Both the position numbers and the translations under genes were made by a program. A stretch of DNA of 64,000 bases from Fusobacterium necrogenes. Lineage in GTDB: Bacteria > Fusobacteriota > Fusobacteriia > Fusobacteriales > Fusobacteriaceae. Under the pieces are notes generated by a model, which was given only the letters and a program-made list of their open reading frames with translations, ran no database searches and had not been told where the DNA came from. This document shows positions 35,208-36,123 of this stretch, in pieces; the first letter of the stretch is position 1; the number at the start of each line of letters is the position of its first letter. The stretch spans positions 1,240,001-1,304,000 of the forward strand of contig NZ_UGGU01000003.1 of NCBI RefSeq assembly GCF_900450765.1. The letters are read 5' to 3'.

Positions 35208-35816
35208 TTATTTTTCTATCTCTATCTTTTCTCTTTTATATTTAGGTAACTTTTCTAAAAACTTACAAGAGATTATAGCTACAGTTGTTGACATAATTGT
35301 CGCTACTATTGTTGGAGCTATTATCTCAGTGGCGTTAGCTGAACCAGCTGCCACTCTATATGCTATCGTACTAGATGAAATTAAAGTTACAGATGAAGTA
35401 TTAATAGCTAAAAACATTACCATAGAGTTTGATGCCTCATCTTTATTATCATTTAAAAGTTGTAACTCCTGCATAGCTTTTATTCCAATTGGAGTAGCCG
35501 CATTTCCTAATCCAAAAAAATTAGCCGCCATATTAGCTACTATACTTCCCATAGCTGGGTGGTCAGCTGGTATCTCAGGAAATAGTTTTACCAAAAGTGG
35601 TTTCATTAAATTTCCCATTGCTTTTACCATTCCTGCCTCTTCAGCTATCTTCATAAGTCCAAGCCACAGAGCCATTACCCCTATCATCTCTAAAGATAAA
35701 GTTACAGCTGTTCCTGCTGATTCAATAGCTGAATCTGTAACTGCTTGTACATTTCCAGTAAATATCCCCACCAATACTCCTATCACTATAAGTCCACACC
35801 AAATTGCATTAATCAT
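35208..35816 (-). CDS. spmA: SpmA-like nucleoside recognition (Gate) domain membrane protein
   Basis: A 202-residue partner of SpmB: starts MINAIWCGLIVIGVLVGIFTG, carries IESAGTAVTLSLEMIGVMALWLGLMKIAEEAGM and the family signature MAANFFGLGNAATPIGIKAMQELQ, then NTSSVTLISSSTIAYR. It is an inner-membrane protein that presumably pairs with SpmB. First gene of spmA-spmB-dacB-ldcA; its AGGAGG site lies just after the riboswitch terminator, so lysine should gate its transcription. Substrate unknown. Confidence 0.88.
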   Translation of the reverse strand: MINAIWCGLIVIGVLVGIFTGNVQAVTDSAIESAGTAVTLSLEMIGVMALWLGLMKIAEEAGMVKAMGNLMKPLLVKLFPEIPADHPAMGSIVANMAANFFGLGNAATPIGIKAMQELQLLNDNKDEASNSMVMFLAINTSSVTLISSSTIAYRVAAGSANATEIIAPTIVATIMSTTVAIISCKFLEKLPKYKREKIEIEK

Positions 35817-35853
35817 ATTTTATACCTCCTAAAAATTTTAGCAAAATAAAAAA

Positions 35854-35876
35854 ATCACAGCTGACTCAACTGTGAT
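35854..35876 (-). terminator. Riboswitch expression-platform terminator
   Basis: Minus strand ATCACAG (35876-35870) pairs with CTGTGAT (35860-35854) and is followed by a run of T. It lies between the lysine aptamer and the spmA ribosome site, as expected for a transcription-attenuating riboswitch. Confidence 0.75.
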
Positions 35877-35910
35877 AAATTACAAAAAAGATAAATCAAT
35901 CCCTCTACAT

Positions 35911-36089
35911 TTCTCACAGATAGCTCTCCATTGAAAATTTTCAATGACAACATTGTAGATATTCTCCACACTGCCAACAAAAGAGTTCAGCCCTCTCCTT
36001 TATTTCGGCAAATTCCCCTTTCAAAATATCATAACGCCTGCCAAGCTAGATACTTCTACTCTTGTCCTTTGCTCCTCTATCCTGTCTCT
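35911..36089 (-). promoter_or_regulatory. Lysine riboswitch (L box)
   Basis: Read on the minus strand, this segment holds the L-box landmarks in order: GATAGAGG (36081-36074) with a following AGAGTA, GAAAGGGGAATTTGCCGAAA (about 36022-36003), the TTGGCAGTG region, TGTCATTG with its AATTTTCAATGG hairpin, and the closing GGAGAGCTATCTG (35929-35917). The P1 ends ACA(G)GATAG and CTATCTGT pair. Length and order match known lysine aptamers such as that of B. subtilis lysC. A terminator and then spmA follow. High lysine should switch the operon off. Confidence 0.88.
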
Positions 36090-36093
36090 TATC

Positions 36094-36123
36094 AGTATAC
36101 TCTAGTTTATATTTCTTGTACAA
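36094..36123 (-). promoter_or_regulatory. Promoter of the lysine riboswitch operon
   Basis: Minus strand TTGTAC (36123-36118) and TATACT (36099-36094), spacer 18 bp. Transcription would start near 36088, right at the 5' strand of the aptamer P1 stem. Confidence 0.6.

What the first reader, a model, noticed from the sequence alone, without database searches (positions are those of the whole stretch)
35208..36123. Lysine riboswitch controlling a SpmA/SpmB operon
The spmA leader contains the conserved L-box blocks in order, a pairing P1 helix, a following intrinsic terminator and a promoter placed so RNA starts at P1. L boxes are known upstream of lysine synthesis and lysine transport genes; placement upstream of Gate-domain spmAB plus dacB and ldcA was not something I could recall. 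It suggests that SpmAB moves lysine, a lysine precursor or a wall peptide, or that wall-peptide turnover is repressed when lysine is plentiful.
Basis: partly seen in the sequence, partly recalled or inferred. Interest (0 to 1): 0.82.

Follow-up and report, generated by a model that had tools for sequence, protein, structure and literature searches.

The report
Lysine riboswitch on wall-recycling transporter operon
A genuine lysine-sensing RNA switch sits in front of the spmA-spmB-dacB-ldcA operon in a group of fusobacteria, which ties a long-mysterious membrane protein pair (SpmA/SpmB) and two cell-wall peptide-trimming enzymes to the lysine supply of the cell and makes their unknown function testable.

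Summary
Rfam RF00168 matches window 35913-36087 (minus), full length, 114.3 bits, E 9e-30, upstream of spmA-spmB-dacB(PBP4)-ldcA. Promoter, extended P1, antiterminator and intrinsic terminator form a standard lysine-OFF attenuator. It is not a one-off: 11 of 12 genomes of this genus carry an L-box at spmA (9 strong, 2 decayed in both aptamer and antiterminator). It was not found at spmA in the Cetobacterium, Clostridia or Bacilli loci checked, so it looks like a lineage-specific recruitment. The other four L-boxes of this genome control only lysine/DAP biosynthesis and probable lysine uptake. In four relatives the operon reads L-box-spmA-spmB-ldcA-thrE-lysA, joining spmAB-ldcA to DAP decarboxylase. 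A fused SpmA-SpmB homologue is predicted to fold like concentrative nucleoside transporters, which SpoVV, the published dipicolinate transporter, also resembles. Best reading: a lysine-repressed salvage operon in which wall stem peptides are trimmed and a CNT-like SpmAB transporter moves a DAP/lysine-yielding product. The switch and its polarity are well supported; the substrate and direction of transport are inference. I found no paper describing this target, but Rodionov 2003 was not readable.

The parts
36094..36122 (-). sigma-70-type promoter, TGTACA - 17 nt - TATACT, placing the RNA start at about the first base of the aptamer
   Evidence: consensus scan, 9 of 12; same position in relatives
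35913..36087 (-). lysine riboswitch aptamer (L-box, RF00168)
   Evidence: cmscan 114.3 bits, E 9.4e-30, full length; core residues conserved except two P4 positions that stay paired (with the alignment)
36077..36085 (-). P1 helix, 5' strand (ACAgGAUAG, one bulged G)
35916..35923 (-). P1 helix, 3' strand (CUAUCUGU)
35914..35919 (-). antiterminator 5' half (CUGUGA), overlapping the P1 3' strand by 4 nt
   Evidence: present in all 9 strong spm L-boxes (in four of them the last A is G), lost in the 2 decayed ones
35870..35875 (-). antiterminator 3' half (UCACAG), which is also the terminator 5' arm
35847..35876 (-). intrinsic terminator: 10-bp stem ATCACAGTTG/AGT/CAGCTGTGAT, then TTTTTTT
   Evidence: stem -11.3 kcal/mol; kept in all 11 loci
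35825..35830 (-). ribosome-binding site AGGAGG of spmA, outside the switching helices
   Evidence: sequence
35208..35816 (-). spmA, Gate-domain membrane protein, 202 aa
   Evidence: Pfam PF07670; orthologues behind L-boxes 98-80% identical
34604..35143 (-). spmB, Gate-domain membrane protein, 179 aa
   Evidence: Pfam PF07670, alignment
32914..34611 (-). dacB-type PBP4 (S13 DD-carboxypeptidase/endopeptidase) with lipobox LSSC; start may lie about 30 nt downstream of the TTG
   Evidence: PF02113, TIGR00666; lipobox read from the sequence
31984..32904 (-). ldcA, S66 LD-carboxypeptidase (muramoyltetrapeptide carboxypeptidase type), no signal peptide evident
   Evidence: PF02016/PF17676; PRK11253 below its cut-off

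Best explanation
A standard lysine riboswitch (L-box) represses transcription of spmA-spmB-dacB-ldcA when lysine is plentiful. Without lysine the 3' strand of P1 (CUGUGA) pairs with the 5' arm of the terminator (UCACAG) and RNA polymerase reads on. With lysine bound, P1 closes, the terminator forms and transcription stops before spmA. The operon most likely feeds lysine supply by salvage: PBP4 (a predicted lipoprotein outside the inner membrane) and LdcA (predicted cytoplasmic) trim DAP-containing stem peptides, SpmA+SpmB form one CNT-like elevator transporter that brings in a wall-derived DAP- or lysine-yielding compound, and LysA turns DAP into lysine. Shown: the aptamer, the mutually exclusive helices by sequence, conservation in the genus, lysine-regulon company, lysA in the same gene cluster in four relatives, and a CNT-like predicted fold. 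Inferred: lysine binding of this copy, operon co-transcription, direction of transport, and the substrate.
For: Aptamer E 9.4e-30. Overlapping P1/antiterminator/terminator, in all 9 strong loci. 11 of 12 genus genomes have the L-box at spmA. The other four L-boxes of this genome control lysC-asd-dapA-dapB-dapH, lysA-dapF, an NhaC-type transporter and an amino-acid ABC transporter. L-box-spmA-spmB-ldcA-thrE-lysA in G024-G027. ldcA beside spmAB also in Cetobacterium and some Clostridia, and DD-carboxypeptidase dacB beside spmAB in Bacilli. CNT-like fold, Z 16.2. SpoVV, another Gate protein, is the DPA transporter (PMC5629000). Two loci whose aptamer decayed also lost the antiterminator.
Against: No binding, expression or transport data. 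P1, antiterminator and terminator arms are nearly invariant within the genus, so there is little covariation to test the switch. The spm L-boxes do not form one clade in a short-sequence tree. SpmAB in spore-formers has a sporulation role with no known lysine link. G028 and the second spmAB copies lack the L-box.
Confidence: 0.55

Rival explanations
1. SpmAB imports lysine itself (or another basic amino acid); dacB and ldcA are carried along because wall turnover is tuned to lysine/DAP supply.
For: Most other L-box targets in the family are putative amino-acid transporters (44 of 79 first genes), and OFF control is typical of uptake genes.
Against: The genome already has two other L-box transporters. 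SpmAB travels with wall carboxypeptidases across phyla, not with lysine genes in general.
Confidence: 0.2
2. The operon adjusts wall maturation: when lysine and hence DAP run short, stem peptides are trimmed and recycled to spare DAP. SpmAB moves something else, for example D-alanine or a wall fragment.
For: DD- and LD-carboxypeptidases both release D-Ala. In two Cetobacterium-group genomes an L-box drives a sodium:alanine-type symporter next to lysA.
Against: No D-Ala-specific gene in the spm operon; lysA, not an alanine gene, joins it in four genomes.
Confidence: 0.15
3. Hitch-hiking: the L-box belonged to lysA, spmAB-ldcA was inserted between them, and in this genome the L-box stayed with spmAB without functional need.
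For: L-box-spmAB-ldcA-thrE-lysA in G024-G027; Cetobacterium spmAB-ldcA has no L-box.
Against: Four genomes with no lysA in the spm operon keep a complete switch (94-89% aptamer identity to the window copy, 114-121 bits), while two others show what decay looks like.
Confidence: 0.07
4. Not a lysine sensor: a relic aptamer or a variant with altered specificity.
For: Two of 11 loci are decayed (78 and 61 bits).
Against: In the window copy the conserved core is intact; the two P4 differences stay paired.
Confidence: 0.03

Closest known systems
Lysine riboswitch (L-box, RF00168), transcription-attenuating OFF type as described for B. subtilis lysC
   Same: Full-length aptamer, P1-dependent choice between antiterminator and terminator, promoter directly upstream
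   Different: Target: surveys list biosynthesis, transport and catabolic genes (PMC5584792; C. difficile list in PMC11477304), not spmAB with wall carboxypeptidases
dacB-spmA-spmB spore-maturation operon of Bacilli
   Same: SpmA and SpmB adjacent to a DD-carboxypeptidase gene
   Different: There an S11-type enzyme upstream and no L-box found; here an S13 PBP4 and an LD-carboxypeptidase downstream, in a fusobacterium (a group not known to form spores)
SpoVV (YlbJ), Gate-family DPA transporter (PMC5629000)
   Same: Gate family, CNT-like; moves a product of the lysine/DAP branch
   Different: Single chain, spore-specific; SpmAB is two chains with unknown substrate
Concentrative nucleoside transporters (CNTnw, vcCNT)
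   Same: Predicted fold of fused SpmAB, Z 16.2 over 270 residues
   Different: About 16% identity, nucleoside binding not implied, no operon link to nucleosides in the window

Membership tests
Lysine riboswitch RF00168 | Covariance-model match above the curated gathering score | tested here: met
   114.3 bits against 30, positions 1-182
Lysine riboswitch RF00168 | Conserved junction core present (AGAGG, GAAAGG, GCCGAA, GGAG.GCTA) | tested here: met
   41 of 43 core columns identical to the consensus of 60 other family L-boxes; the 2 differences lie in P4 and stay paired (alignment)
Lysine riboswitch RF00168 | Binds L-lysine | not testable with these tools
   needs in-line probing or calorimetry
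OFF-type transcription attenuator | P1 3' strand shared with an antiterminator that excludes an intrinsic terminator | tested here: met
   4 nt shared P1/antiterminator, 6 nt shared antiterminator/terminator; in 9 of 9 strong loci
OFF-type transcription attenuator | Lysine lowers read-through | not testable with these tools
   needs in vitro transcription or a reporter
SpmA/SpmB | Adjacent Gate-domain proteins with the SpmA motif NFFGLGNAATP(L/I)G and the SpmB motif GSTETTFYVLAVYFG | tested here: met
   about 45-64% identity to Bacilli/Clostridia SpmA
SpmA/SpmB | Role in spore maturation | not tested
   the host belongs to a group not known to sporulate (general knowledge)
Concentrative nucleoside transporter fold | Structural match to solved CNTs above unrelated helical rows | tested here: inconclusive
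   CNTs fill the top of the list, Z 16.2-13, but Foldseek alone gave E above 0.001, and the model is a fused homologue from another phylum

The most novel reading that the evidence does not exclude
SpmAB is a two-chain CNT-like transporter for a DAP-pathway compound (meso-DAP, a DAP-containing stem peptide, or a relative), and fusobacteria have put it under lysine control as a wall-to-lysine salvage route. The same substrate class would explain SpmAB's role beside dacB in spore maturation.
Probability: 0.3. Interest if true: 0.75.

Novelty: new member of a known kind. Interest (0 to 1): 0.52.

Why it matters
SpmA and SpmB have been named only from a spore phenotype and no substrate is known to me. 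A metabolite-specific riboswitch is one of the strongest genomic hints to the metabolism a gene serves. Its conservation across a genus, with lysA in the same gene cluster in four species, narrows the candidates to lysine, DAP or DAP peptides and gives direct uptake and complementation tests. It also adds cell-wall peptide processing to the list of functions under lysine riboswitch control.

Tried and rejected
L-box at spmA outside the genus: none in 40 loci scanned with all of Rfam (several Clostridia loci carry a T-box downstream of spmB instead), and none by a consensus pattern in 80 genome-contig loci, mostly Bacilli (the looser core pattern misses roughly a fifth of true L-boxes). L-box at Cetobacterium-group spmA (g3) and G002: none in the five loci scanned; no listed L-box adjoins the others. 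ON-switch or translational control: rejected for lack of a suitable platform, since the AGGAGG lies outside the helices and the terminator is canonical. Altered aptamer: the two departures from the core keep P4 paired. A tree of L-boxes to date the recruitment was unclear: short sequences, clade-wise clustering, possible gene conversion. Literature: no paper held both 'lysine riboswitch' and spmA or LD-carboxypeptidase, nor 'spore maturation protein' with lysine and riboswitch. Mukherjee 2017 and Sun 2013 main texts lack it. Rodionov 2003 is not held, so prior mention there is not excluded. NCBIfam gave no SpmA-specific model.

Full report
Observation. Rfam's lysine model matches window 35913-36087 on the minus strand end to end (114.3 bits, E 9.4e-30). 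It is the only Rfam family in the window. Directly upstream is TGTACA-17-TATACT (36122-36094); downstream is a 10-bp hairpin with seven Ts (35876-35847). The genes are spmA and spmB (Gate domain), an S13 DD-carboxypeptidase of PBP4 type with a lipobox, and an S66 LD-carboxypeptidase.

The switch. P1 can extend to eight pairs with one bulged G (36085-36077 with 35923-35916). CUGUGA (35919-35914) shares four nucleotides with P1 and pairs perfectly with UCACAG (35875-35870), the 5' arm of the terminator. P1 plus terminator and the antiterminator are therefore mutually exclusive. The computed energies are -58 kcal/mol for P1 plus terminator and -63.5 for the antiterminated state without ligand, as an OFF switch needs if ligand binding stabilises P1; these numbers are rough. 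The ribosome-binding site AGGAGG (35830-35825) lies outside the helices, so control is by attenuation.

Conservation. The genome lies in a family that includes Cetobacterium (L075 has the contig length of G013:C2). The genus itself is unnamed by the tools; I take it to be the Fusobacterium mortiferum/ulcerans/varium group (inference). In 61 family genomes spmA occurs in 23, all in three genera, and it is absent from the other 37 genomes of the phylum searched. In this genus 11 of 12 genomes have an L-box before spmA. Nine score 110-122 bits, and all nine keep CUAUCUGUG and a terminator beginning AUCACAG. Two (G022 78 bits, G021 61 bits) have lost letters of the core and also the antiterminator half while keeping the terminator: decay of both halves together is what a linked function predicts. 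G028 has none, nor do the second spmAB copies of G024, G025 and G027; in G024 and G025 that second pair sits by an oligopeptide-type ABC ATPase gene (read from sequence). The Cetobacterium-group spmAB-ldcA loci scanned have none, nor do the Clostridia, Bacilli and delta-proteobacterial loci scanned.

Company. The other four L-boxes of this genome precede lysC-asd-dapA-dapB-dapH, lysA-dapF, an NhaC-type transporter and a lysine/arginine-type ABC transporter (asd, dapA and dapB read from sequence). Among 79 other L-boxes of the family the first genes are mostly Na+/H+-antiporter-family and related transporters, lysA, lysC and dapF, with a few others. In G024-G027 the cluster runs L-box-spmA-spmB-ldcA-thrE-like-lysA. 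LysA acts on meso-DAP, so this places spmAB-ldcA next to DAP use.

SpmAB. Spore-former Bacilli keep spmAB behind the DD-carboxypeptidase gene dacB in nearly every locus fetched. Some Clostridia and Cetobacterium keep ldcA beside spmAB. The partner enzymes differ but all trim wall stem peptides. A naturally fused SpmA-SpmB from a delta-proteobacterial genome (L145) was predicted at pLDDT 87.8. On second-look alignment, concentrative nucleoside transporters fill the top of the list (Z 16.2, 270 residues), though Foldseek E-values alone are weak. SpoVV, another Gate-family protein, transports dipicolinate, a product of the lysine branch (PMC5629000). This supports a transporter and hints at substrate chemistry, without proof.

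Mechanism. I favour a lysine-repressed salvage operon: wall stem peptides trimmed by PBP4 and LdcA, a DAP-yielding product carried by SpmAB, and LysA completing lysine. A lysine exporter is unlikely because lysine turns the operon off. Rivals are direct lysine uptake, general DAP-sparing wall control with another SpmAB substrate, and hitch-hiking of the switch from lysA.

Known or new. The riboswitch is an ordinary family member. The target class is, as far as the held literature shows, undescribed. The finding is real, modestly surprising and experimentally useful.

Noticed in passing
window 36192-36309 (+): Candidate small RNA diverging from the riboswitch: promoter TTGACA-16-TATAAT (12/12, extended -10), RNA from about 36226, a nearly invariant 40-nt 5' part (GTCATARGACATTTCCTTRAATTACATTTTAATTTCTAC) and a terminator hairpin (36269-36299) whose sequence changes between clades while the hairpin is kept. 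Found in 11 of 12 genomes of the genus, near-single copy, beside the spm L-box or within about 1.2 kb of it except in G028; no Rfam match.
   Followed up: partly
L255:3141-3546 (-) (G052:C2): Two complete lysine riboswitches in tandem, 64 nt apart, each followed by its own terminator-like hairpin, before an NhaC-like transporter gene.
   Followed up: partly
L256:2808-3288 and L257:2957-3436: Divergent pair of lysine riboswitches about 130 nt apart, one driving lysC-asd and the other an M20 peptidase, perhaps the acetyl-DAP deacetylase (Pfam for the G024 homologue).
   Followed up: partly
L219 and L234 (Cetobacterium group): L-box before a sodium:alanine-type symporter gene followed by lysA: another transporter coupled to DAP decarboxylase.
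   Followed up: partly
L074 (G028:C39): L-box before an operon of peptidase C26, an amidohydrolase and a sodium:alanine-type symporter, an unusual lysine riboswitch target.
   Followed up: partly
L250 and L259: L-boxes before 4HBT-type thioesterase-fold genes followed by lysine-fermentation-like genes (kal-kce by my reading), where an ON switch would be expected; platform not examined.
   Followed up: no
L044 (G022) and L045 (G021): Decayed L-boxes before spmA that share GCCGAA to GCTGAA and lost the antiterminator but kept the terminator; how spmAB is expressed there is unclear.
   Followed up: partly
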